NCBI GenBank assembly: GCA_037355855.1
Contig: CM074759.1
Span: 2,976,001 to 3,040,000, forward strand
From: Pseudo-nitzschia pungens
Lineage: Eukaryota; Bacillariophyta; Bacillariophyceae; Bacillariales; Bacillariaceae
Length of the DNA stretch: 64,000 nucleotides
Direction of reading: 5' to 3'
This document shows positions 36,045 to 61,571 of the stretch, in pieces. The position numbers and the translations under genes were made by a program. Every line of letters starts with the position of its first letter. The first letter of the stretch is position 1. The notes under the pieces are model-generated. The model worked only from the letters and a program-made list of their open reading frames with translations. It ran no database searches and was not told the origin of the DNA.

Positions 36045-36826
36045 TGTAACACTCTAGGGTAGAAATTAGATGGAGTGGTACGCGATAGATGTATTTTAAA
36101 GATGAAAGGTTAATAAATTCTTGGTGTGATTAAAGAAATTGTGATTAAAGAAATTGTGAATGGTTGAATACTTTACGAGATGGGACTGATTTCTTGAGTA
36201 TAGAATGAATGAGCAATCGAAGATTATCAGCAAGTCATAAGACTCTTGATATTTATCTTGATACTTGAATATCCAATCAGTATTGAACTGTATGTGTATA
36301 TATACTGAACATACATACATGAATACCACATATATTGGAGTACATGCGGGATTCAATAATCATTTAGAGACTTTCGTAGGATCGTAACATTAACATGTTA
36401 CATAGTTCTCCAATGATTAAGTGAAGTTCGTATGTGGTGCAATACAATATCGATGGAAATGAGATATGCTTGTTCGGAGAACCGGTTGAAGATGTTATGG
36501 TCTAGAGTAGAAATTTCGGAGTGGTATGAAAAATTGTGACTACTACGTAATCGTTAACTCTTTTGAGAGAGTATTTCAGTTTTCGTGTGAACGTTTGAAT
36601 ATACACGAGCGTGCCTTGCTACTATTATTTGAATATTGGCACACATGCATTGCTCGGCTGTCCGGCTTACAGTTTGAATTCAATTCAAACACCGGTCAGT
36701 ATGCAGCGCCGGGGGGCTTGCATGTGGGATTCGGTTAATTATTTAATCGTGACTGCTAGCTACGCTAGCCCGTCACACAGTAATCATTTAGAGACTTTCG
36801 TAGGATTGTAACGTTAACATGTTACA
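36045..36826 (-). mobile_element. Miniature LTR element (TRIM-like), duplication CATGC
   Basis: Two LTR-like ends (36045-36402, and about 36493-36826) enclose only about 90 bp, flanked by CATGC at 36040-36044 and 36827-36831. The left LTR and the internal piece ('gttcggagaaccggttgaag') match the 3' end of element C2 in reverse complement. The right LTR is a mosaic: its middle resembles the Gypsy-B LTR ('catgtgggattcggttaatt') and its end resembles C-type LTRs. No coding capacity. Confidence 0.75.
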
Positions 36827-46925: not shown

Positions 46926-47232
46926 TGTAACACTCTAAAGTAGAAATTCAGAGTAGTATGAATAATTGTGTGTTATTTCACTTTACGAGATGGGATTCAA
47001 AATAAAGAGAGGAAATAATGAGTGATGATGTCATCGCGATCTCTTTATATAATCTACATCCCTGTATATAACATATATTTTGTATGTAACCTTAATCGTA
47101 CGATCGCTCTCTTCTGCATGCCTGTTCATACATACTGGACATTCCTGTATGGATATCTCTATATTCGATTCCCATGTGGGATTCGGTTAATTATTAATTT
47201 GTCACACTACTAGCCTACGCTAGCATGTTACA
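46926..47232 (-). repeat. Gypsy-B 3' LTR
   Basis: Begins TGTAACACTCTAAAG and ends CTAGCATGTTACA on the plus strand. Differs from the other LTR at 'attcctg' versus 'atccatg' and 'aatttg' versus 'aattcg'. Confidence 0.9.
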
Positions 47233-47262
47233 TAGTACCTCATGATTGAACGAATCCCACAG

Positions 47263-47959
47263 TTAAGCCGTCCAGTGATCCATGGAGCAATCTGAGTCAT
47301 TTGATTGCCTTAATTCGATATCTGCAGATTCATTTGACGTAGACTCTGATTGATTCGATTGAGTTGATTGGTGCTCCCGATAAGGTGTAATCTTTTGGAT
47401 GTTCACTGTTTCAGCCACAGAGGGAGCTTTCTGCAGTTTAACAGTTCCATTATCATTGACTTGACTGATCACAAAGGGACCGGTCTTTCAAGGTTGTAAC
47501 TTATCGGGGTCCAGCTCGTGCATCCATACCTTATAATTAACTTGGAAGGTATGATTGATTCTTTTGGCATTATCTATGAGTAGGTTCCTGTTAATTCCTT
47601 GTTGTCGGAGTTGCTGCAGAGCTAACAGGTTAGAGGTCAGTGGCAGATCAATCAGCATGTCTCTGTTGAATACCAGGGCCCCTGGAGATGCTTGTAAGGC
47701 CGCATTGACTGCACACCTGGAGGCATGCATGCAGGTCACAAGTGCATTGTCCATGAGTTGGCTAGCTCTGGTATTTGCTTGTGGGGGATTAACATGTACC
47801 AGGACTCGTAGAATATCAGCAACTGTGTGATGGACTCGTTTACAGATGGCATTGGACTGGGGATTCTTCACTGTTGTCAGAATAGATTGGGTTCCATACT
47901 GCTTGAGGGTAGTTTGAAACTCAGCTCCTAGGAATTCTCCACCATTGTCATGGACACAC
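47263..47959 (-). pseudogene. Gypsy-B integrase, second half
   Basis: Reads VHDNGGEFLGAEFQTTLKQY, then NPQSNAICKRVHHTV. The position of the catalytic Glu after NAIC is Lys here, so the DDE triad is broken. The core runs to KVWMHELDPDKLQP, where a TGA at about 47488 interrupts; a GPY/F-like module (TGPFVISQVNDNGTVKL) follows to 47263. It joins the first half (50610 onward) across element C1. Confidence 0.8.
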
Positions 47960-48886
47960 CTGATTGTTACACGTTAAGGTAGAAATACACGATAAAGTAT
48001 TATTTTAAAGATGAAAGGTTAATAAATTGTGTTACCAAAGAGAATGGTTGAATGCTTTATGAGATGGGAATGATTCCTTGAGTATGGGATGAATGAACGA
48101 TCGAACAATAATAATGTTCGTTGGGCATAATGTCATATTATCAATAATCTGACAGTCATGGGAATCTTTGTTTGAATTGTATGTGTATTCTTGTACGTTG
48201 AATATTCAGTATAGGCATAAAAACACCTCCTGTTGTAATAGGAGTTAGTAGGTAGGTGAAAAGCCGAGCGTTGGATGTTTGCTTGCCGTGTCTGCGATTT
48301 GTTGAAGCAGAGAAGGGATGCATTGTTAGTGTTGAATTGATGTTAAAAGCGGTTGCGATTTGCCGTATACTTTGCCAGTCTTTATTTGGGTGTGTTCGCA
48401 GCAGTCTTCTGGAGTTCCGAATTTTGTAACTCCAGGGCACCTCTGTGGGTTTTGAATATGAGGTTTGTGGGATTGCTTCCATATTTTTTTGGAGCTTCCT
48501 GTGGACTATTGGTTTGTCTGGAACAAGGTTGGTCTTGTTGTTGCTGCTGTACCCTTATCGATTATTGATCGATTATGTTGTTTTGCGTCTGTACCCTTGC
48601 AAGTTGATCTGCGTCCAGATCTCTTTGCTTTATCCTTATTAGTTTATCGGTTGATTGTTGCCATCATGTTGGATCAGACTGAGCGCAATTTTTATTTAGT
48701 TCGAACATTTTGTTTGCAACAGGGCTCATCTCTGTAGGTTCCTTCCCCTTCTTCAGGAATTCTCCTCCATGCGTCATCCCAGACAGCAGTGCTGTACTGG
48801 CAATCAGGGCCAGTGGCGCTGAAGGCACGGTGCGGTGGATATCGTGATCCTGGATACGTGATCCTTTTGTGTGTGGTTTGGTTTGG

Positions 48887-49946
48887 CTATGGTTGCCAAG
48901 TAAGACTGCCATCAAAGTGTCTTTCGACGCATCCTCCATGTTCCATGCAATAGGATTCTATTGCTTGCCAGATATGGGCTTGGAAGGATTTGTTGGTGGA
49001 AGCAGCAGTGCTGCCATTTTCATTGCTAGGAGCCGAAGCAGTGCTGTTGTTGCTGCTATTGCTCTTATTTCTTTTGGAATATTTATTTCTTGGGCATTCA
49101 GACCAATCATGATCATGGCCTGTAATTCTGCAAGGATTATTGTACTTGCGCTTGCTAGTATGATTAGTGCTGTTGCTTGTTTCTTCGTCTTCATCTTCAG
49201 CAGATTCAGCGTTGCTGTCACTGTCTGAATTAGAGCTGCTGTTGCTTTCAGCGTTCGAATCAGAGCTGGTGTTGACTCTGTTAACATCAGAATCATATGG
49301 ATCGTCGATGGATTGCTTGCTGAGTCTGTCCAGAGAGTTCATATGATCGATTATAAACTGGATAGTGGTTTGTGGTCAAATCCCTCTGTGGATTCTTTAG
49401 TAGTCTTCAATCCATTTGTGTGGGAAGCTGTGGAGCAAGATTGTCATCTGTTGTAGATGGTTTAGATCAGCAGCATAGCCTTGTAGCTTTGCAGTGTATT
49501 TAAAGAGCTGTTCCATGGTCTTTGCAAGAGATGTCCACTGATTTCTTCAGCGTTCAAAGGTATGTATGCATTGTATCCTTGGCGTCTTCAGCGCTGTAGT
49601 ATTGTTTGATGAAAGCTGCGAATGCTCTGTTGTAACCATTTCTTGTAGTGGGATAGTCACGTTGGCTTCTTGTTAAGGCTCTCCACTTGGTTTGGGCATC
49701 AACGCAAAGGCATCAACCAAAATACTTGATGTAGTTATTTGTTGATAGATCAAGATCTTCTGCTGCATTTTGGAAGGCTTCTTCGGTGTGTAGGAGTTCT
49801 TCTAAATCAACGTTTGTGAATAGAGGGACTTTGACGCTGTCTTCTTGGTCTTAAGCATTGTACACTGTTAGCGTAACAAGCTTGGGATTGGAGCTGTCAA
49901 AGGCTCTCTTGTAAGGGATTGGAGGATCTCTGTAAAGTCCTGCCAT
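48887..49946 (-). pseudogene. C1 gag, decayed
   Basis: The start ATG at 49946 gives MAGLYRDPPI, the same beginning as the Gypsy-B gag. Homology to C2 gag continues with stops and shifts. The C-terminal part (SLDRLSKQSIDDPYDSD, an Asn/Ser-rich stretch, then HDHDWSECPRNKYSKR) is open at 49342-48887. Not functional. Confidence 0.78.
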
Positions 49947-50255
49947 GGTTCTTGATTTGATTCAGAGCGTTCGATCGTATCGATCGATCGGAGATTTGAA
50001 TTGCTTGTGGAGCGTTTGATCGATTTGGTGTTTGATCGATTCGATGTTCGATCGATTCGGTGTTTGATCGATTCGATGTTCGATCGGTTTGTTCGATCGG
50101 TTCATTTGATTGTTTGTAGATTTCGATCAACGTTGTTTCTTTTTGCTTGTCAGGGTATCAATGTATCCCTGTTGTTTAGGATAAAGGTTGTTTTGGATTC
50201 AGTACTGAGTTCCTGTCTGTCTTCTACTCTGAAAGATAAACAGTAGTACTTACTG

Positions 50256-50604
50256 TGTTACACGTTAAGGTAGAAATACACGATAAGAGTATTATTTTAA
50301 AGATGAAAGGTTAATAAATTGTGTTACCAAAGAGAATGGTTGAATGCTTTACAAGATGGGAATGATTCCTTGAGTATGGGATGAATGAACGATCGAACAA
50401 TAATAATGTTCGTTGGGCATAATGTCATAATATCAATAATTGTTTATTCATGGGAATCTTTGTTTGAATTGTATGTGTATTCTTGTACATTGAATATTCA
50501 GTATATGTACATGAATATCATATATATTCTTGTGTATTGGAGCACATGCGGGATTCAATAATCATTTAGAGCCTCTCGTAGGGTACCTACGTCAACATGT
50601 CACA
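50256..50604 (-). repeat. C1 5' LTR (349 bp)
   Basis: TGTTACACGTTAAGG...CAACATGTCACA on the plus strand. Next to it at 50241-50255 is the imperfect palindrome CAGTAGTACTTACTG. Confidence 0.85.
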
Positions 50605-50609
50605 CTGAT

Positions 50610-51559
50610 AGGTCTTGGATACCTTGAGAGCCAGCAGTTCTTGAATTGGTCTGACACATGCTGAGATGACTTGTCTCTGATTCTGATGATTTCCAGGAGG
50701 TTGGTAACCGGATCAATACAGGTCAGGACCTTGAAGTTGTAGTTCTTGCCTTGAGCTGTAATCTTCCATGGGCCTATGAGATCCACATGTACCTCGTTGA
50801 ATGGTGTGAGTGGGGCTTCTTTTAGTGGGAGCTTGCCATATTTGGAGTGCTGGTTCTTATATTTAATGCAATTGTCAGGGCAGATGTAAGTCTTGCAAAG
50901 ATTGGATAGATTGTAATGCAATTGTCGGGGCAAATGTAGGACTTGCATAAATTGGACAGGTTGTCAGCATAGAATCTTGCTGAAATAGTCTGATATAGCC
51001 TGGTGGATCCACAATGGCCCAGCAGGAGATGATACCACTTGATGGTATCATTGGAGAGAGAGCTTGGTATGTAGATACGCCAGTTGTCTGGATTCGTGGG
51101 ACTGGCATAGCAGAGGATGTTGTTGCCTTCTAATTCTTGGTAGAAGAAGGCTTTAGATTGAATCTTGAACTTGATAGTAGGATCTTTCTGCTGATGAGGA
51201 TAGATATTGGAATAGTTCACCGGGCATTCCAGGTCTTGGTTATTTGGTAGGTTGACTAGGCACTCATTGTTCAGCAAACAGGATTGCAGTTCCTGGTCTG
51301 CGTCATTGCACAAGTGATGGAATAGGTTGGGGAACTCTGTTAGAAACAGTTCTTCATCTTGTTTAGGAACTTCAAGCTTCAAGAAATCGATTAAGGTGCC
51401 CTTTTCAAGGGCTTTCTTCCCCACAGTAGGTGGATCCATCAGGGGGAGTCTGGAGAAGGCATCAGCAAGAACATTCTTCTTGCCTTCAACATAGGTGAGA
51501 TTGACACTGAATTCTTCAAGGAATAGTCTCCACCGTAGGACTCGTTGGACTGAGAGGGT
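50610..51559 (-). pseudogene. Gypsy-B RNase H linker and integrase first half
   Basis: Minus-strand frame with an integrase zinc finger (WYHLLLGHCGSTRLYQ, then SNLCKSYICPDNC). A ~66-bp local tandem duplication at about 50878-50950 repeats the SNLCK.YICPDNC block and shifts the frame. The core then reads FNEVHVDLIGPWKI and VLTCIDPVTNLLEI, with the first catalytic Asp. It stops at C1 and resumes at 47959. Confidence 0.78.
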
Positions 51560-52534
51560 TCAGAAGGTAAGGTTCTTATGGTCAGTATATACATTGATGA
51601 CTCCACCGAGGAGCATCTTTCTGTACTCTTTGCAGCAGAGTACTATGGCTAGAAGTTCTTTCTCCGTAGTAGTGTAGTTCTTTTGGGCATCAGATAGTTT
51701 CTTGGACCAATAGGCTATAGGTTTGCCATCTTGTATGATGGCAGCGCCAAGCTGTAGGTCTGAGGCATCAGTGTACAGTTCAAAGGGCTTGTTAAGGTCT
51801 GGATAGGTGTTCAGCGCATCCGCTGCCACCATGGCTTTCATCTCTTGAAAGGCCTTGTCTTGAGCAGGTCCCCAAGTGAAAGCTGAAGGAGCTTTTCTTT
51901 GCTTGCCTTTGATGGCAGCTGGTTGAGAAGTTTTCTTGGGGGTACCAGTGATATTGAAGAGAGGAGCTAGGGCATGGGATCTTCGGGGCCACATGTCTCT
52001 GTAGTATCCTACTGCTGCTAGGAAGGACTTGACTTGGGTCACAGTTCTTGGTCGGTCCATATGTAGGATGGCTTCAATCTTCTTTCTCCATGGCTTAACT
52101 GCTGTAGGTGTCATCCAATAGCCCAGAAAGTCAGTCTCTTGTATAGCCCAATCACACTTGAGTGGGTTGCACTTGAGCCCATTTTGGTTAAGCCTATCTA
52201 GGATCTTGTCGACAGTCTTCATGTGGAGGTCAAAAGAGCCATTGGTCCAGATACCAATATCATCAATATAAACAGTGCAGTCAGTGTCTTGTAGGATATC
52301 TTCCATTAGTTGCTGGGCAACGTCTGGAGAAACCTTGACACCCATTGGTTTTCTTTGGTACTCATAGCAGCCGTATGGAGTGAGTATGGTACATAGTTTC
52401 TTGCTTGCGTCATCCAGTTCAAAACGAGAGTTGTTGTTGTTGTTGTTGTTGTTGTTGTTCGAGCGCTTTTGTTGTTTGTTGTTATTCTTGTTGCTTTTCT
52501 TGTTGGCTTGGCGCTCATGACAGCTCATGTGGTC
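51560..52534 (-). pseudogene. Gypsy-B gag remnant fused to RT and RNase H
   Basis: Reading leftward: gag remnant MSCHERQANKKSNKN, an Asn run coded by an AAC repeat (about 52434-52465), then mid-RT (LDDASKKLCTILTPYGCYEY), VYIDDIGIW with catalytic Asp pair, and RNase H (FELYTDASDLQLGA, VYTDHKNLTF), ending at a stop at 51560. The RT lacks its N-terminal third. On the other side gag continues across A3 into 60506-60661 (TVQFIVDH). Confidence 0.82.
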
Positions 52535-52723
52535 TGCCATACCCCGGGTCTACTAGTGATTAGAATAGTAGTGATATGCAAATTGTGAGCTCTATTGATT
52601 AGTCTATCTGCTACAGCTCTGAGAGCTCTCTGGATCGGCGATTTTGTCGGCTCGCCGATTGTTTTTATCCTTATCCTTAATCCAGTCCCGCGTGTCCTCG
52701 TGACTGTATTCTGGCGCACGGCA
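52535..52723 (-). repeat. A3 3' LTR (189 bp)
   Basis: TGCCATACCCC...GCGCACGGCA, preceded by TGGTC. Minus-strand purine tract next to it: ATGGAGGAGCA. Confidence 0.9.
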
Positions 52724-52751
52724 TGCTCCTCCATGGCACTGTTACATTTGG

Positions 52752-54636
52752 TTACTTCTCCGTTTTAGTGCTATCCCTGCAATAATAGGGATGGACTCTT
52801 CTGATGTTAACCCGGTCGGTTACAAAGGGAGCAGTTTCAATAGTTACAGTTCCATTGTCATGGGCCTTGAGCACCTTGTAAGGTCCTTGTCGTGGGAAGG
52901 ATAGTTTCGGAATAATGCCCTTCCTTTCCAGGGTGACATAGTCTCCTTCCTTATAGACATGGGGGATCCTCTTCCGGTTCTCCCTGATGTTACTCTTGTG
53001 GATACTCTTTTGTTTCCTGGCTTGGATTGTTTCCCAATCCACTGGGAAATTCACAGGCATAAACATGTCCCTTCCAAACACCAACTGTGCCGGGGAGTAT
53101 CCTAGGGTGGTGTGGATGGCACTGCGGATAGCATATGCTGCCTTGGTAGTGAACTCCTCAAAAGGATCCTTCTCGTGGAGATCCCTTTGTTCCAGGTTAA
53201 AGGACAATAGACAATCCTTCAAGACCTGGTGGATTCTTTCCAACACTGAGTTGGATTGTGGGTTCCAAGCGCCACTGGGCTTTCTTTTCATCCCCATGTT
53301 ATCACAGAGCTCCTGGAACTCTGCTTTGAACTCACTCCCGCCATCAAAGCCAATTTCCTTTAGGCGCGGATACTTTGCTAGCCAGGTACTGTCCAACAAT
53401 CGTTGAGTTTCTGCTGCATTTGGGGAGTCCTTCAGGTGAGCCAGTTCAAACCATCCGGTCACTGGGTCCACCATGGTGAGAACATGGATATGGTAGTCTT
53501 TACCATTTTTATTGTGGACAGTTGCAGGTCCCCAGAGGTCCACATTGACCCTCTGCCATGTGGTGACTTCAGCTGCGTTCTCCGGCAGTAGTCCATACTT
53601 CTTCCGGCCACTCTTTTTGAACATCTGGCATGTGTGGCAGTGTTTACAGAGATCCTGGACATCCTTTCTGAGGCCTCTCCAGGTGAACACTGATCGGATG
53701 CTCTGTTCCATTCTCTTTTCTCCAGGATGGACCAGCATGCTGTGGTACCATTCCATAACTCTATCTTTGAGCTTGTCCGGGATCAGAATCTTCCCTTCTC
53801 TGTGGATTAGACTGTAACCTTCCACATTTTTGGTGGTTAGGCGATTGTCTTTTTCCAGGGCACTCATGATTTCCGTGTCCTTCTGTTGGTAGAACTGAAT
53901 CATGTCCGGGGCAAGTGGGAATGCACTATTGCCCTGGAATTCTTCCGGTGCTTCTTCTCCAAGTGGGAATAGTAGCTGTCGGAGGTGCTCTTCCTCATCC
54001 GCGTAGGTGAGGGGCTTATTTGGTGGCAGCCATTCCACTGTATCTGCTGGATCGTCTGTAATGTCCAGACGAGACAGCGCGTCTGCTGCATCGTTGTCCT
54101 TGCCAGCAACGTGCTTGACTTCTGGATGGAACTCCTCCATGAGGAGTCTCCATCGTACCATTCGCTGGGTGGGCATCTGCTGGTACAGCAGGTTAAGATG
54201 GTCCGTGTGAATGATCACATCTTGTCCTCGTAGGATTCCTTCGAATGCCTTTAGGCCTTCTACTATGCCCAGGAGTTCTTTTTCTCCGACAGTGTAGTTG
54301 AGCTGCGCCGAGTTCAGTTTCCGTGTGTAGAATCCAAGGGGCTTGCCATCTTGGCATACAGTTGCTCCCAGTTGCCTATCACTGGCATCTGAGTAGAGAT
54401 GAAATGGTTTTGTAAAGTCTGGGAATGCAAGCTTGGCTTCTTCTGCAAGCATCCTCTTCGCCTCCATGAAAGCTTTCTGCTCTGCTGGACCCCAGTACCA
54501 GTTCATTTTGCCCTTTTTCCCTGCTAGTTTGTTGAGGGGAGCCAGGATGTGGGAGCGGCGTTTCCACATATCCCTGTAGAAATTCACCATCCCAAGAAAC
54601 ATCTTGAGTTGTTTGGTGTTCTTGGGGGCTTCCAGG
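52752..54636 (-). CDS. A3 pol, C-terminal part (late RT, RNase H, integrase)
   Basis: Continues A3 pol beyond the C2 insertion. It begins in LEAPKNTKQLKMFLGM, then RNase H (HLYSDASDRQLGA), the integrase zinc finger (HCHTCQMFKKSG), the DDE core (VDLWGP, GFDGGSEF, VLERIH) and a GPY/F-type module, ending at 52752. All catalytic residues are present. Without C2 the whole A3 pol would be one open frame. Confidence 0.9.
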
Positions 54637-54942
54637 TGTAACATGCTACCGTATGTTACTCTACGAGGGCTCTAAATGATTATTGAATCCCGCATGTACT
54701 CCAATATATATGATATTCATGTATGTATGTTTGGTATATATATACATACAACGGATACTGACAAATATCAAGATAAAATATCAAGAGTCTTACGACTCGC
54801 TGATAATCTTGATCGCTCATTGCTACTCAAGGAATCATTCCCATCTCGTAAAGTATTCAACCATTCACAATTTTATAATTATTCTTTATTAAAATACCTC
54901 TATCGCGTACCACTCCATCTAATTCTACCCTAGAGTGTTACA
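54637..54942 (+). repeat. C2 left LTR (306 bp), sense
   Basis: TGTAACATGCTACCG...CTAGAGTGTTACA. The palindrome CAGTAATTACTG follows directly at 54943-54954, as in Gypsy-B. Confidence 0.88.
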
Positions 54943-55278
54943 CAGTAATTACTGTCCGCTTGAAAGTAGAAGACAAAGACAAGAACTCAGTACTGAATTC
55001 AAAACAACCTTTATCCTAAACAACAGGGATACATTGATACCCTGACAAGCAAAATCCTACAATCAGGACCTTCGGAAGAATCGAAACAACGCCGATCGAA
55101 GTCTACAAATCGATCGAACGCTCCACAAAACAATTCAAACCTCCGATCGATCGCAATCTCCAACCGAATCGATCGAACGAAACGATTGATACCTACGAAA
55201 CGCCGATACGAATCGATCGCACGCTCTACAAAGCAATTCAAATCTCCGATCGATTAATACGATCGAAGCTACGAAACC

Positions 55279-56358
55279 ATGTCAGGATTATACAGAGATC
55301 CTCCAATCCCTTACAAGAGAGCCTTTGACAGCGCAAATCCCAAGCTTGTTACACTAACAGTTTACAACGCTGAAGACCAAGAAGACAGCGTCAAAGTCCC
55401 TCTATTCACCGCCAAAGGAGGCCTAGAAGAACTCCTATATACCGAAGAAGCCTTCCAAAACGCAGCAGAAGATCTCGATATATCAGCAAATAAATATATC
55501 AAATACTTCGGCCGATGTCTCTCTGTCAATGCCCAAACCAAGTGGAGAGCCTTAACAAGAAGCCAACGTGATTATCCAACTACAAGAAATGGATACAACA
55601 GAGCCTTCGCATTCTTCATTAAGCAAGAACACTGCAGCGCTGAAGATGCAAAAGACATCATGCACACTTATCTCCGAAGCTCCGAATGCAAGAAATCCAG
55701 CAAAGTATCATGCAAAGACCATGCATACCGAATGGAACAGCTCTTCAAATACACTGCAAAACTACAAGGCTTTGCTGCTGATCTCAACCAGTTACAACAG
55801 ATGACAATCTTGCTCCACAGCTTTCCAAATGAATGGATTGAAGACTACTGCAGAATCCACAGAGGAATCCGACCACAAACCACTATCCAGTCCATAATCG
55901 ATCATATGAGCTCTTTGGACAGACTCGGCAAACAAAAACAGTCTTCCATCGATAATCCATACGATTCTGATATCAACAGTGTCAGCAATTCCACCAGCAA
56001 TCCAAACGCGGAAAGCAACAGCTCTAATTCAGACAGCAACAGCAACGCTGAATCTGAAGACGAAGACGAAGAAGAATCAAACAATACCAACAACAGCAAA
56101 CGCAAGTACAACAACCCTTGCAGAATTGCAGGACATGACCATGATTGGTCTGAATGTCCAAGAAATAAATATTCCAAAAGACATAAGAGCAATAGCAGCA
56201 ACAACAGTACTGCTTCGGCTCCTAGCAATGACACTGGAAGCACTGCTTCCAATGAATCCTTCCAAGCTTACATCAGACAAGCAATGCAATCCTATTGCAT
56301 GGAGAACGGAGGACGCATCGAAAGAAACTTCGATGGCAGTCCCACGTGGCAACCATAG
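55279..56358 (+). CDS. C2 gag, intact
   Basis: 359 residues beginning MSGLYRDPPIPYKRAFD. The N-terminal two thirds are capsid-like and alpha-helix-prone. An Asn/Ser/Glu-rich acidic linker (residues ~230-275) follows, then a single Cys/His patch, CRIAGHDHDWSEC, and a basic SKRKYN/KYSKRHKS region likely to bind RNA. It shares its start and motifs with Gypsy-B gag (MAGLYRDPPI). It is the only intact gag of this type here. No protease, RT or integrase is encoded in the element. Confidence 0.83.
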   Translation: MSGLYRDPPIPYKRAFDSANPKLVTLTVYNAEDQEDSVKVPLFTAKGGLEELLYTEEAFQNAAEDLDISANKYIKYFGRCLSVNAQTKWRALTRSQRDYPTTRNGYNRAFAFFIKQEHCSAEDAKDIMHTYLRSSECKKSSKVSCKDHAYRMEQLFKYTAKLQGFAADLNQLQQMTILLHSFPNEWIEDYCRIHRGIRPQTTIQSIIDHMSSLDRLGKQKQSSIDNPYDSDINSVSNSTSNPNAESNSSNSDSNSNAESEDEDEEESNNTNNSKRKYNNPCRIAGHDHDWSECPRNKYSKRHKSNSSNNSTASAPSNDTGSTASNESFQAYIRQAMQSYCMENGGRIERNFDGSPTWQP

Positions 56359-57487
56359 CAGCCACTAAAACCAAACAAAAGGATCACGAATCCAGGATCA
56401 TGATATCCACCGCACCGTGCCTTCAGCGCCACTGGCCCTGATTGCCAGTACAGCACTGCTGTCTGGGATGACGCATGGAGGAGAACTCCCCAAGAAAAGA
56501 AGGGAAGGAACCTACAGAGATGAGCCCTGTTGCAAATAAAATGTTCGAACTAAATACAAGTGCTCAAGACCGATCCAGAGTGACGGCAACAATCAACCAC
56601 ATTAAATAAATAAAGATTCATATGGCAAAGAATCACATATAATCGCAATAAAGATCTGGACGCAGATCGGTTCGGACGCGAACCAGTTGCAATGGGTACA
56701 GACGCTAAGAATGCCATGAATCAATCAATCAATCGAATCGACAATCTCGATATCGATAAGGGTACAGACGCAAACAAAATAAAAGGTACAGCAGCAATAA
56801 CAAGGACACGTTTGAACCCAAACAAACAAATAGTCCACAGGGAGCTCCGAAAAACAATCGAGCAATCCCACTAAAATTATATCCTACACCCACTAAGGTG
56901 CTCTGGAGTTACGAAAATTCAAACCTCCAGTAGATGCTGCGAACAATACCCAAAATGAAAGACCGGCAAAGTATCCGGCAACTCGCGAATGAATTAACCG
57001 ATTCCAACCGTAACTAACAATGCGTCCCCTCTCTGCGTTACTATATATCGCAGATACGGCAAGTGACACATCCAACGCTCCGGCTTTTCACCTACCTACA
57101 TTAACTCCCATTACAACAGGAGGTGTTTTTATGCCTATAGAGCAATCGTTCTCAATCATTCGAACTCAGCTCCACTACCCCGAGAGGTACATCACAGTTG
57201 GGGGAGGAAAAGAATTTTCTTCGACTCTTTTTCTATTTTTACCATGTCTTTATGACCCTTCTCAAGAACAAGAAACAAATCTTCGATTTTTTGAGTATCA
57301 CAAAGAACGTTCTTCAATCCCACTTCGATCTACATTACCATATATCTTCAGAATGGTTCGAATGGCATATATCATCATCTTCAACCGGTTCTCCGAACAA
57401 GCATATCTCTTTCCATCGATACTACTCAACTCCGAACCTATTGTATTGAACCACATGCAAACTTCACCTAATCATTGGGGAACTATG
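56359..57487 (+). other. C2 non-coding internal region
   Basis: Conserved with C1 (about 48214-48886 in reverse). It includes a possible remnant of the region after gag (THGGELPKK in one frame), then AT-rich sequence. The last ~340 bp, ending TTGGGGAACTA, match the internal piece of the miniature element at 36403-36492 and look like the normal polypurine end that should precede a sense LTR. Confidence 0.65.
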
Positions 57488-57793
57488 TGTAACACTCTAG
57501 GGTAGAATTAGATGGAGTGGTACGCGATAGAGGTATTTTAATAAAGAATAATTATAAAATTGTGAATGGTTGAATACTTTACGAGATGGGAATGATTCCT
57601 TGAGTAGCAATGAGCGATCAAGATTATCAGCGAGTCGTAAGACTCTTGATATTTTATCTTGATATTTGTCAGTATCCGTTGTATGTGTATATATACCAAA
57701 CATACATACATGAATATCATATATATTGGAGTACATGCGGGATTCAATAATCATTTAGAGCCCTTGTAGAGTAACATACGGTAGCATGTTACA
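57488..57793 (-). repeat. C2 right LTR (306 bp), inverted
   Basis: Reverse complement of 54637-54942 (two differences by eye). Confidence 0.88.
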
Positions 57794-57798
57794 CCAGG

Positions 57799-59189
57799 CA
57801 CTTCATCGCCTCCAGCTTCTTTGGCTGGGGTTGAATGCCCTCGGTTGTTAATAGAAATCCCAGATATTCCACTTCTTTTTGCATGAAAAAGGATTTTCTG
57901 AGGTTGGCTCGGAAGCCAGCGTCATCCAGTCTTTGTAGGACTGTATCGATCTTTTTGAGGTGATCCTGTTCAGATTCACCTTCTCTCTGGATGATTAGAA
58001 TATCATCGATATAGACCAGGACATAGTCCAGATCGCCAAGTAGATTCATCATTACTGATTGGAAGATGTCCGGCGCACAAGCAATCCCCATTGCCAGTCG
58101 CTTGTAGGCATACTTCCCCCATGGTAAAATGGTTGAACAGATTTTCTGGCTCTCCTTGCGGATGGGGATGGTGTAGTATCCCTGGGATAAGTCCAGCGCC
58201 ATAGCTGATTTGAACTTTTGTAGCCTTTGGATTGTTTCCCCTATTCGTGGTAGCGGGAAGGGCTTCCTTTGTATGGCTGCATTCATTTTTCGAAAGTCTG
58301 TAAGGACTCGAATGTCCCCTGTCTTTTTGGGTTGACAAAAGGTAGGGGATGCCCACGGTGAATCATCATCGTGGGGGAGTTTCTCCAGCACTCCAATATC
58401 ACAGAGTCTGTTGATTTCCTTCCATAGTGCTTGTTTGAAGGCATGGGGCACTGAGTAGTACCTTTGCCTGACCGGTTTGACCCCTGGTTGGAGTTCGATG
58501 GACACCGGCTCTATATTTTTGAGTAGTCCCAGACCTCCTCCAAAGAGTGTTGGGAACTTCTTTAGTGTAGTCTTTAAGGCTTCCTTGGACTCGTCTGTGA
58601 TCTCCAGGTCGTTGACCATAGCGTCGATATCTACCTTGGAGTAGTCCACGTCCAGGATTTTGGATTGCCTCTCTTCCTCCTGTTGGAGGATCGGACTTTG
58701 TGTGTTGGCAAAGAATACTGCCTCACATTTGTCCGGGTCAGTAAGCTCCCCCATTCCCTTCATGGGGATGGAGTCACCCTGCCATTCGATTGTTCGGGAG
58801 CTGTATTTTATATCCAGTCCCAGTTGTGCCATCAGGTCGGATCCTATAATCATGTCATAGGGCACCTCCTCATGGTGATGGTATTCATCCACTTGGAAGG
58901 TCCATTTGATGGTCTTGGAATTTGAAAATTCTATCAGTCTTAGTCCCACTGAAGCCGCAGACTTGGTTCGGAACTTGCCTCCGTACGTGTTGTAGGTGAC
59001 AGATCTTTGGTCTCGGTTTGTTAGTTGACTTCGGCCGACAAATTGCCTTAATACGATGGATTTGGAGCAACCAGAGTCTAATAGGCCCCGGAGCATCCTC
59101 CCCCTTCCCTTGTGGTCCAATACCTCCACACAGACGTCTGCAAACCGGTTGATTATGCGGGGTCCAGAGTGGATGGTATCAGGAGCCAT
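57799..59189 (-). CDS. A3 pol, N-terminal part (protease, RT)
   Basis: Starts at ATG 59189 right after the gag TGA. Protease block LLDSGCSKSIVL, then RT with FRKMNAAIQRKPFPL and VYIDDILII. The frame is open up to KKLEAMKC at the C2 insertion, where a stop follows inside the insert. Confidence 0.9.
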
Positions 59190-60032
59190 TCAGTTGTGGG
59201 ATCCTTTGTTCTTAAAGGTCTTTCTGTACTTTCTTCTGTACTCTTTGAGTTCTCGCTCGGAGATATCGATCTCGTCATCAGAGACTTCATGATCGGCTTG
59301 GGCCGTAGCCAGTACATAGGAGTACTCATGGTTTGATAGGTTCCATCCCCAGTGGGGCTTGGGATGTTGCTCATTGTCCGAGTCTTCCTTTGCCACAAAA
59401 TGCTCCTTGAGCAAGTTGATGGTTTCCCGGTCGAATTTCCCCTTCTTGGAGGGTCCTCCGGTTAGTTTCCAGCATTTGCCGGCATGGACCTTGCCACAGG
59501 TCTTGCATAGCTGTTTGTTGCCGTTATCCATAGGGCGCTTCTTTTTGCCAGGGGACTTCCCGTGGTGGGTTCCTCCCCCAGATGTGGCCTTGGGTGTCTT
59601 CTTGGTGCCACCATTCTGTTTTTCCAGGTCGGAGATTCGTTTGCGGAGTTCGTCCTCGCTCCGGATGGTGATTTCCAGGTTTTCGAGTTTGTCGATGGTG
59701 GTGTTGAAGGAGTGGGCATAGACGTCCCATCCGATATGGTCCAGTTTGTCCCTTTGGGAGGAGGTCATGTTGGAATCTAGGATTTCCTTCATGTCCTCTT
59801 CCGTGTAGCTGGACGGAACAGCGCCGGTTGCGGCGCCGCTTTCCCAGAGGCATTCTGGTAGATAGCTCTGTAGTTCGGCTTCCCGTTGTCCCGTGGGATT
59901 AGTGGTGTTCGGGTATTTATTATATACCTTTCCGGATATCCGGATATCACGGTTTTGGTTGGCATACCCTTTTCGGTCTGTCCATCCACTCAGTGTTGGT
60001 CCAATTAGTCCACTCACTGGATTATGTGTCAC
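59190..60032 (-). pseudogene. A3 gag, N-terminal half deleted
   Basis: The C-terminal half of gag (ELQSYLPECLW to KNKGSHN) with the short zinc knuckle CKTCGKVHAGKC. A deletion at about 59880 fuses it in frame to leader sequence, creating a start at 60032 (MTHNPVSGL) that is not natural gag. The TGA-ATG junction with pol is retained. Confidence 0.83.
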
Positions 60033-60311
60033 TTTTTCAGTGTGTATTTTCGAATTTTTTGATTATTTTTGCTGTCAACCATGGTCCTGTTCTGGTCCTT
60101 AGGTGTCCTTGTTGCTGCTGCTGCTCCCTGTATTGGAACTAACAGTTGCTGGGGTCGGTCTTCCTGGTGCTGCAGACACCGGATGTCCTTCTCCCTGTTT
60201 TGCGTCTCCGTGCCTCCATTATTTCCGGCAGTCTTTCGATCTCGTCGGTCCCTTGGCCGATCAATCTCTTTCTGCTCATGGTCATCAGCACTCAGCTTGA
60301 TTTTAAAATCA

Positions 60312-60500
60312 TGCCATACCCCGGGTCTACTAGTGATTAGAATAGTAGTGATATGCAAATTGTGAGCTCTATTGATTAGTCTATCTGCTACAGCTCTGAG
60401 AGCTCTCTCGATCGGCGATTTTGTCGGCTCGCTGATTGTTTTTATCCTTATCCTTAATCCAGTCCCGCGTGTCCTCGTGACTGTATTCTGGCGCACGGCA
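60312..60500 (-). repeat. A3 5' LTR (189 bp)
   Basis: Matches 52535-52723 except two bases; the 14-bp palindrome abuts it at 60298-60311. Followed by TGGTC at 60501-60505. Confidence 0.9.
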
Positions 60501-60505
60501 TGGTC

Positions 60506-61138
60506 CACAATGAACTGGACTGTGGTATCCTCTTGAATGCCACTGTGGATAATCCCGTAGTTCTCAATCCAGGCAGAGGGGAAGGAGTGTAGGAGAATGG
60601 TAAGTTTCTCCACTCTGGAAAGAGGCGCACTGCTTCCCTCTAGTTTCTGGGTGTACTTCATGAGGATAAGGATACGGTCAGCATGTTCCTTGCATGTGAC
60701 TGATGGAGTCTTTCAGCATTCTGAGCTTCGTAGATAGGTGTGCATAATGTCTCTGGCGTCCCTGGCATTGCAGTAGAGCTTGGTGAAATCAATGAATGCT
60801 TGCTTGTATCCTCCAATCTCTTCTTGAGCGTATTGGTATTCGTTGGGGTCCAATGGATCCTTTATCATGTCATTCCACTTGCTTTGGGCGTCGGTGGTGA
60901 GACAGCGACTGAAGTGGGTGAGATAGATGTCAATCGGAAGTCTCAGGAGCTTAGCGGCGTTCGAGAAAGACTCCTCCACAAAGAGCAGTTCTTCAAGGCC
61001 TCCTGTTTCTGTAAACAGGGGGACTTTCATGCTGTCGGTCCTGTCCTCATCGACGTTGTACAGGGTGTAGAGCTTTGGCTTGGTTTGATCAAAAGAGCTC
61101 TTGTACGCGATGGGAGGATCTCTATAGAGGCCTGCCAT
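60506..61138 (-). pseudogene. Gypsy-B gag, N-terminal part
   Basis: Starts at ATG 61138 (MAGLYRDPPIAYKSSFD) and runs to a stop at 60713 after YLRSSEC. Homology resumes at 60661 (MKYTQKLEGSSAPLSRVEK) and continues to the A3 insertion at 60505. C2 gag reads through the same point with CKKSSKVSCKDH, so a shift or stop lies near 60700. The C-terminal portion is on the other side of A3, at 52529. Confidence 0.8.
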
Positions 61139-61252
61139 TGTTGCTTGGTTGTTTGCTGGAGATGAAGGTGCCCCTGTTGTTGAGGCTGTCGATATTTTTG
61201 TGTTGGTGAGAGTTCAGTACTGAATTCTAGTACTGTTCCTACGTGAAGCGGA

Positions 61253-61264
61253 CAGTAATTACTG
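61253..61264. promoter_or_regulatory. Perfect palindrome at the primer-binding position of Gypsy-B
   Basis: CAGTAATTACTG abuts the 5' LTR, where a TGG-type tRNA primer site would be expected. Identical to 54943-54954 in C2. Confidence 0.55.
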
Positions 61265-61571
61265 TGTAACACTCTAAAGTAGAAATTCAGAGTAGTATGA
61301 ATAATTGTGTGTTATTTCACTTTACGAGATGGGATTCAAAATAAAGAGAGGAAATAATGAGTGATGATGTCATCGCGATCTCTTTATATAATCTACATCC
61401 CTGTATATAACATATATTTTGTATGTAACCTTAATCGTACGATCGCTCTCTTCTGCATGCCTGTTCATACATACTGGACATCCATGTATGGATATCTCTA
61501 TATTCGATTCCCATGTGGGATTCGGTTAATTATTAATTCGTCACACTACTAGCCTACGCTAGCATGTTACA
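61265..61571 (-). repeat. Gypsy-B 5' LTR (307 bp)
   Basis: Matches 46926-47232 with three differences by eye, although the two now lie more than 14 kb apart because of nested insertions. Confidence 0.9.

What the first reader, a model, noticed from the sequence alone, without database searches (positions are those of the whole stretch)
54637..57793. LTR retrotransposon with inverted LTRs but a clean 5-bp target duplication (C2)
The two 306-bp LTRs of C2 are inverted relative to each other, with two differences by eye, yet CCAGG flanks both sides and A3 pol is otherwise uninterrupted. Both outer ends are therefore U3-type (TGTAACATG...). Established retroviral-type integration joins one U3 end and one U5 end. 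The internal end TTGGGGAACTA, which should meet a sense LTR as at 36402/36403, instead meets the U5 end of the flipped LTR. Possible origins are integration of a rearranged or autointegrated cDNA, an integrase that accepts two U3 ends, or a later LTR inversion. The element then has the shape of a gag-carrying TIR element.
Basis: partly seen in the sequence, partly recalled or inferred. Interest (0 to 1): 0.88.

Follow-up and report, generated by a model that had tools for sequence, protein, structure and literature searches.

The report
Diatom retrotransposon with one flipped LTR
A gag-only diatom retrotransposon sits cleanly in the genome although one of its two end repeats is flipped; it looks like a one-off product, probably of DNA that rearranged before it inserted, and it may record a way of inserting that is normally a dead end.

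Summary
A 3,157-bp gag-only element (54637-57793) has 306-bp LTRs in inverted orientation, differing at 2 of 306 positions, with CCAGG on both sides. In 14 of 14 other copies of the interrupted Ty3/gypsy pol, CCAGG occurs once, uninterrupted. Searches for three LTR-end types found this junction nowhere else. Of 30 related loci, 20 have direct LTRs, 9 no scorable pair, and only this one is inverted. The two LTRs are each other's closest kin among those compared, which fits one cDNA or a later flip of the element's own LTR rather than a nested insertion from another known copy. Best explanation: the cDNA integrated into itself at CTATG on the internal/3'LTR border; the inverted 2-LTR circle, with a near-palindromic U3:U3 junction, was recut by integrase and inserted with two U3 ends. 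The steps are inferred, and an in-place flip of the 3' LTR is the main rival. The element should be unable to replicate further. It is a singular aberrant product, a new variant of a known kind, not a new class. Long reads are needed to exclude misassembly.

The parts
54632..54636 (.). left copy of the target duplication, CCAGG
   Evidence: sequence; single CCAGG in 14 of 14 held relatives of the target
54637..54942 (+). 5' LTR, sense, TGTAACATGC...GAGTGTTACA, 306 bp
   Evidence: T at LTR position 107, where the flipped LTR and 6 of 9 other LTRs compared have C and 3 have T
54943..54962 (+). leader start / presumed primer-binding region CAGTAATTACTGTCCGCTTG; begins with a perfect 12-bp palindrome; no TGG in the first 48 nt
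   Evidence: same motif after the LTR of the interrupted gypsy; a 20-base junction pattern with up to 1 mismatch occurs at 590 places
55279..56358 (+). gag ORF, 359 aa, open, MSGLYRDPP...; no pol domain found in this element
   Evidence: Pfam on the two other frames over 150 aa lying in the element on the + strand: 0 families; 14 homologues, the named ones looked at from Pseudo-nitzschia; 46% identity over 263 aa to the gag of the interrupted gypsy
57477..57485 (+). 3' end of internal region, GGGGAACTA, polypurine-tract-like
   Evidence: meets a sense LTR in the relatives where visible
57486..57487 (+). extra dinucleotide TG at the inner junction
   Evidence: of 17 places matching the junction pattern only this one has the internal 3' end upstream
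57488..57793 (-). flipped 3' LTR; U5 end inside, U3 end outside; 306 bp
   Evidence: A at LTR position 29, where the 5' LTR and 8 of 9 other LTRs have G and the ninth is not covered
57794..57798 (.). right copy of the target duplication, CCAGG
57789..59189 (-). N-terminal side of the interrupted Ty3/gypsy pol reading frame (RVT_1); stop-to-stop coordinates, so the first 10 bases lie in the LTR end and CCAGG
52752..54671 (-). C-terminal side of the interrupted pol reading frame (RNase H, Integrase_H2C2, rve); stop-to-stop coordinates, running 35 bases into the LTR

Best explanation
C2 is a non-autonomous, gag-carrying Ty3/gypsy-type element, mobilised by enzymes of an A3-like gypsy (inferred), that inserted as an already rearranged cDNA. 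Proposed steps: (1) a normal LTR-internal-LTR cDNA was made; (2) its two integrase-processed ends attacked its own internal/3'LTR border at CTATG, a concerted autointegration that flips the short 3' LTR segment and closes an inverted 2-LTR circle; (3) this leaves GGGGAACTATG joined to the flipped U5 end (the observed extra TG) and a nearly palindromic U3:U3 junction, GCATGTTACA-TAG-TGTAACATGC; (4) integrase cut this junction 3' of both CA dinucleotides, giving a linear molecule with two U3 ends; (5) it was inserted in concert into CCAGG in a gypsy pol, with the usual 5-bp duplication. Shown: structure, target duplication, empty site, extra TG, closeness of the two LTRs, uniqueness within the searches made. 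Inferred: steps 1-5.
For: Full-length flipped LTR with a clean 5-bp duplication. In a script that slid the 5-bp target window over 12 positions around the border, exactly one (CTATG) reproduces the observed inner junction. The two LTRs differ at 2 positions; the nearest of nine other LTRs compared differs from each by 6 substitutions and one 11-bp indel, and a 63-base stretch of the LTR with up to 3 mismatches occurs at 4 places only: these two LTRs and the C6 pair. That fits two ends of one cDNA. Known chemistry: autointegration can yield inverted 2-LTR circles (PMC4751563, passages, which cites Shoemaker 1980 and Garfinkel 2006, not read); HIV-1 integrase cuts the palindromic 2-LTR junction (PMC1905944, abstract); relinearised 2-LTR circles are reported to integrate (PMC4372172, abstract and section 10). 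Only autointegrations near the border leave a symmetric U3:U3 junction, so survivors should look like this (inference).
Against: One copy, no replicate. The CTATG match is a compatibility only: each short offset has a window that fits. The TG has other possible sources: the CA next to the 5' LTR (an unprocessed U5 end) or a staggered break. The circle junction of step 3 no longer exists and cannot be checked. The HIV work concerns U5:U3 junctions, not U3:U3, in another virus family; the yeast eccDNA paper itself found no inverted 2-LTR circle among its reads and only one mosaic read fitting autointegration. I found no report of U3/U3 integration by a diatom gypsy (held library, searches). LTR kinship does not separate this route from an in-place flip.
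Confidence: 0.4

Rival explanations
1. In-place flip of the 3' LTR after a normal insertion: template switching or break repair, helped by the LTR's own short terminal inverted repeat (TGTAACA/TGTTACA), turned the LTR around.
For: Explains the closeness of the two LTRs and the intact CCAGG. The LTR ends match as inverted repeats (7 contiguous bp, 10 of the first 12), giving a 7-bp homology at the outer junction.
Against: Homology-guided flipping predicts GGGGAACTATGTAACACTC without the extra TG; to get TG the inner switch must use about 1 bp of homology, or a 2-nt staggered break exactly at the LTR start. The borders then coincide with the LTR ends without an enzymatic reason.
Confidence: 0.25
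2. Aberrant reverse transcription or end joining: a cDNA ending at the polypurine tract was joined to an unprocessed U5 end carrying the CA that lies between LTR and leader, then inserted with two U3 ends.
For: The CA following the 5' LTR is seen in most scored relatives and reads TG in reverse, exactly the extra dinucleotide; the outer right end is then a natural U3 end.
Against: Needs a free cDNA lacking its 3' LTR and a second LTR end; the primer and hence the true unprocessed U5 end are unknown (no TGG in the first 48 nt, no complement of 8 nt or more in the LTR).
Confidence: 0.13
3. Nested insertion: a second element entered the internal/3'LTR border in opposite orientation, shrank to a solo LTR, and the resulting palindrome lost the original 3' LTR by slippage between two TGTTACA repeats.
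For: Every step is ordinary (recalled) and it yields the exact product, extra TG and CCAGG included (inference).
Against: The flipped LTR should then match some other element, but its closest kin found is the 5' LTR of the same element. Needs the element's own daughter or a lost sibling as donor, and three events. Limit: LTR pieces at the edges of L031 (80 bp, 98.75%) and L033/L034 (33 bp, 100%) could not be compared in full; the 63-base stretch does not occur there within 3 mismatches.
Confidence: 0.1
4. Assembly error that turned the LTR round.
For: LTRs are repeats; the assembly method and the reads of G000 are unknown to me.
Against: No gap; the two LTRs are not letter-for-letter copies; a matching target duplication and a 2-nt insertion are not what a flipped repeat node should produce; not a fold-back, since the right flank continues the pol.
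Confidence: 0.07

Closest known systems
Inverted 2-LTR circles from autointegration (retroviruses, Ty1; PMC4751563, passages)
   Same: LTRs in opposite orientation, formed by integrase attack on the element's own DNA
   Different: those are circular, unintegrated forms; C2 is integrated with a 5-bp host duplication
TR-GAG / gag-only non-autonomous LTR elements (name recalled, from no call)
   Same: LTRs, an intact gag, no pol, a probable gypsy helper with shared end signals
   Different: 20 of 30 related loci here have direct LTRs and none other is seen inverted (9 unscorable); C2 has one flipped LTR
DIRS-1-like tyrosine-recombinase elements (PMC5633606, passages)
   Same: gag-like ORF between inverted LTRs
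   Different: no tyrosine recombinase found; an internal complementary region was not looked for; C2 has a 5-bp target duplication, as DDE integrases make (recalled)
Diatom Ty3/gypsy elements, GyDi (PMC2806351, passages: gypsy RT sequences of P. multiseries and P. multistriata cluster with GyDi)
   Same: probable kinship of the interrupted helper gypsy, by host group
   Different: no phylogeny made here; no inverted-LTR copy seen in the passages read
Mu killer, maize (PMC3440606, start of abstract in a listing)
   Same: inverted arrangement of transposon parts that could give hairpin RNA
   Different: no small-RNA evidence here; resemblance of shape only

Membership tests
LTR retrotransposon, Ty3/gypsy-type, non-autonomous | two LTRs with TG...CA ends flanking the internal region | tested here: met
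   306-bp LTRs, TG...CA
LTR retrotransposon, Ty3/gypsy-type, non-autonomous | LTRs in direct orientation | tested here: not met
   inverted, so it is filed as a rearranged derivative, not a regular member; its relatives: 20 direct, 9 unscorable, 1 (itself) inverted of 30 loci
LTR retrotransposon, Ty3/gypsy-type, non-autonomous | short target duplication typical of the family (5 bp) | tested here: met
   CCAGG. Of 20 direct-LTR relatives 17 have matching 5 bp (15 listed as matching or shown with L039 and L040 included as 16, plus L027 by reading), 1 does not (L036), 2 not scored (L038, L054); L033 and L034 may be one duplicated locus
LTR retrotransposon, Ty3/gypsy-type, non-autonomous | kinship of gag with a gypsy element | tested here: met
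   46% over 263 aa, E 5e-71, to the reading frame on the 5' side of the interrupted gypsy; its pol domains are RVT_1, RNase H, Integrase_H2C2, rve, the last just under the Pfam cutoff
LTR retrotransposon, Ty3/gypsy-type, non-autonomous | tRNA-type primer-binding site | tested here: inconclusive
   no TGG in the first 48 nt and no complement of 8 nt or more in the LTR; tRNAs were not searched
DIRS-like element | tyrosine recombinase; no target duplication (recalled) | tested here: not met
   no such domain by Pfam in the gag frame or two further + strand frames; 5-bp duplication present
Self-mobile TIR element | several copies with the same inverted ends | tested here: not met
   no second copy of the junction in the searches made
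Product of U3/U3 integration of a relinearised inverted circle | intermediate circle with U3:U3 junction | not testable with these tools
   needs unintegrated DNA

The most novel reading that the evidence does not exclude
A retrotransposon integrase recut the U3:U3 palindrome of its own autointegrated, inverted circle and inserted a two-U3-ended molecule in concert: a genomic record of escape from 'suicidal' autointegration. Once in place, the flipped LTR could also drive antisense gag RNA, or a read-through hairpin of up to 306 bp, and so silence its family, in the manner proposed for Mu killer.
Probability: 0.33. Interest if true: 0.65.

Novelty: new variant of a known kind. Interest (0 to 1): 0.48.

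Why it matters
Autointegration is called a suicidal pathway (PMC2644782, start of abstract in a listing). A copy with two U3 outer ends and a perfect 5-bp duplication would suggest that such molecules can sometimes be rescued, and that integrase need not have one U3 and one U5 end. It gives an exact, searchable signature (flipped LTR, 0-5 extra LTR-start bases at the inner junction, clean target duplication) with which other genomes can be screened. If the flip happened in place instead, it is an example of how an LTR pair is turned into an inverted repeat, which may seed silencing loci.

Tried and rejected
Rejected: recombination between two different insertions (target duplication matches and flanks are contiguous); a chance inverted repeat (306 bp, 99%); a replicating lineage of inverted elements. 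For the last: one search gave 17 places, all listed, and reading the 51 bases upstream of each shows the internal 3' end only at C2 (one other, L020, is a 5'LTR/leader junction read in reverse, the remaining 15 have other flanks). One search (junction without TG) gave 263 places, of which only the first, ordered by mismatches, are listed: none with 0 mismatches, two with 1. One of these is the flank of L028; the other, and two further places reading TACTATG, looked like possible flipped junctions of the gypsy type, so I fetched them: all three are 5'LTR/leader junctions. Places beyond the listed ones were not seen. One search (flipped 5' LTR) gave 2 places, both reading as direct junctions. 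One search gave 2 places, C2 and L021, whose upstream bases are unrelated. One search gave 3 places, C2 and two that were not examined further. These patterns cover three LTR-end types within 3 mismatches; more diverged types were not covered.

Led nowhere: a primer for the leader; paper searches. Searches (71 papers, 25 listed; 1; 3; 1; 16, 15 listed; 466, 20 listed) showed no report of an integrated DDE-integrase element with inverted LTRs in what I saw (titles, abstract starts, some passages; held library only, older virology papers mostly not held). Pfam on gag gave only a sub-cutoff match to CBP_CCPA. In one search the top self-match of L039 and L049 is an inverted pair that is not the LTR pair; L039 and L040 were scored direct; L049 and L053 (top match internal) were left unscored with L041, L044, L045, L048, L051, L052 and L055.

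Correction made on checking: I first called both LTR differences private. Position 29 is so among the LTRs that cover it; at position 107 three of nine more distant LTRs share the T.

Full report
What is there. The element spans 54637-57793. Its left LTR (54637-54942) reads TGTAACATGC...GAGTGTTACA on the + strand; its right LTR (57488-57793) is the same sequence on the - strand. They differ at 2 of 306 positions. CCAGG lies directly outside both ends. Between them is a gag ORF (55279-56358, 359 aa). No pol domain was found: Pfam gave no family above cutoff for the gag frame and none for the two other + strand frames of over 150 aa in the element.

Host. The gag has 14 homologues at E <= 0.001. 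Of the names shown, P0001 bears taxid 37318, which is Pseudo-nitzschia pungens, and P0011 the label jgi/Psemu1. G000 has 66.9 Mb in 28 contigs; a published P. pungens assembly has 67.11 Mb (PMC11499653, passages). The host is thus very likely a Pseudo-nitzschia, perhaps P. pungens; this is an inference.

Target and empty site. The element interrupts a Ty3/gypsy pol on the - strand between RT and RNase H. In 14 of 14 other held copies of this pol (L057-L070) the left and right flanks meet with a 5-bp overlap, CCAGG occurring once. Insert plus one CCAGG is 3,162 bp, a multiple of three, and both halves lie in the same frame. A single insertion with a 5-bp duplication is the plain reading.

The inner junction. 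In 18 of 20 direct-LTR relatives the 3' junction is visible and reads ACTA followed by the start of a sense LTR. Here GGGGAACTA is followed by TG and then by TGTAACACTC, the U5 end in reverse. A simple flip would lack the TG. If a processed U5 end was transferred into the border with a 5-bp stagger, the window CTATG gives the observed sequence, the only one of 12 window positions tried that does. This is a compatibility, not a strong test, since each short offset has one such window. The same TG could also be the CA that follows the 5' LTR, read in reverse.

Kinship of the two LTRs. Against nine other LTRs of the genome, the flipped LTR has A at position 29 where eight have G (one does not cover it), and the 5' LTR has T at position 107 where six have C and three more distant ones T. 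The closest of the nine (the C6 pair) differ from each C2 LTR by 6 substitutions and one 11-bp indel. A 63-base stretch with up to 3 mismatches occurs at four places: these two and the C6 pair. As far as seen, the two LTRs are each other's nearest kin, as expected if both stem from one cDNA or if the 3' LTR turned over in place. An LTR brought by a different known copy is unlikely.

How usual is it? The 30 best related loci (L026-L055; one search scored 40 of 832 first-look candidates) were scored: 20 direct, 1 inverted (this one), 9 without a scorable pair. Of the 20 direct pairs, 17 have matching 5-bp flanks, 1 does not (L036) and 2 were not scored. Pattern searches for inverted junctions of three LTR-end types found only this locus (with checks; limits in Tried and rejected). 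For scale, a 3' internal-end pattern occurs at 194 places and an LTR/leader-junction pattern at 590.

Helper. The LTR pair around the interrupted gypsy (46926-61571, GGAGT on both sides) has closely similar end sequences; its leader begins with the same CAGTAATTACTGTCCGCTT, its 3' internal end is ACTA, and its gag is 46% identical over 263 aa. Such an element is the natural source of integrase and reverse transcriptase for C2. This is inferred from shared signals, not shown.

Mechanism. Four routes give the observed sequence. Autointegration at the border, followed by recutting of the inverted circle and U3/U3 insertion, explains the full-length flip, the extra TG, the LTR closeness and the clean duplication with integrase chemistry alone; parts have precedents (PMC4751563 passages, PMC1905944 abstract, PMC4372172 abstract and section 10), but not for a U3:U3 junction, and PMC4751563 itself saw no inverted circle in its yeast reads. 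The route also accounts for the location, because only hits near the border produce a junction that integrase could recut (inference). An in-place flip needs fewer events but predicts no TG if guided by the terminal inverted repeats. An unprocessed-U5 joining explains TG but needs odd cDNA pieces. A nested insertion with palindrome deletion fits the bases but conflicts with LTR kinship. I put the first at 0.4, and rearrangement before integration by either cDNA route at a little over 0.5.

Consequences. With a flipped 3' LTR the transcript lacks a sense R at its 3' end, so the first strand transfer should fail (general knowledge of reverse transcription). The copy is then a dead end, in line with its being alone. 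The flipped LTR could promote antisense transcription, and a read-through transcript could pair over up to 306 bp (predicted duplex energy -546 kcal/mol for the two whole LTRs); no RNA data were available.

Verdict. A real, clean and rare structure. A lasting novel mechanism is not supported; an integrated rearranged cDNA is the best of several explanations, and it is testable.

Noticed in passing
54943-54954; also 61253-61264: The leader after the LTR starts with a perfect 12-bp palindrome CAGTAATTACTG and has no TGG in its first 48 nt, so the primer for reverse transcription does not look like an ordinary tRNA 3' end; the LTR/leader-junction pattern occurs at 590 places. A dimerisation or unusual priming site is possible.
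   Followed up: partly
46926-61571: The 14.6-kb gypsy between 99% identical LTRs with GGAGT flanks seems composite: repeats 7,777 bp apart (52535-52735 and 60312-60512) and a second RT/RNase H piece at 51560-52549 suggest two gypsy copies within one LTR pair.
   Followed up: partly
47996-50505: A second gag-type element with direct LTR pieces (95%) lies in the same gypsy on the - strand (L054).
   Followed up: no
36045-36826: Shortened element on the - strand, flanked by CATGC on both sides, with one whole LTR (36045-36402) and a truncated second LTR end after about 380 bp of other sequence.
   Followed up: no
L033 and L034 (G000:C9:3332321-3337807 and 3405702-3411188): Two loci 73 kb apart with the same element and, as far as shown, the same flanks: a segmental or assembly duplication.
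   Followed up: no
L038 (G000:C2:4684069-4689529): Three LTRs in a row with a shortened internal piece between the first two: a tandem-type rearrangement.
   Followed up: no
C2 element versus G000:C6:4201320-4204408: LTRs are about 95% identical but internal regions only 81%, so LTRs and internal regions may have been exchanged between lineages.
   Followed up: no
L027 (G000:C2:2143978-2149270): The two LTRs are 100% identical over 287 bp but their starts differ, with ATGAG on both outer sides: another oddly rearranged or converted LTR pair.
   Followed up: no
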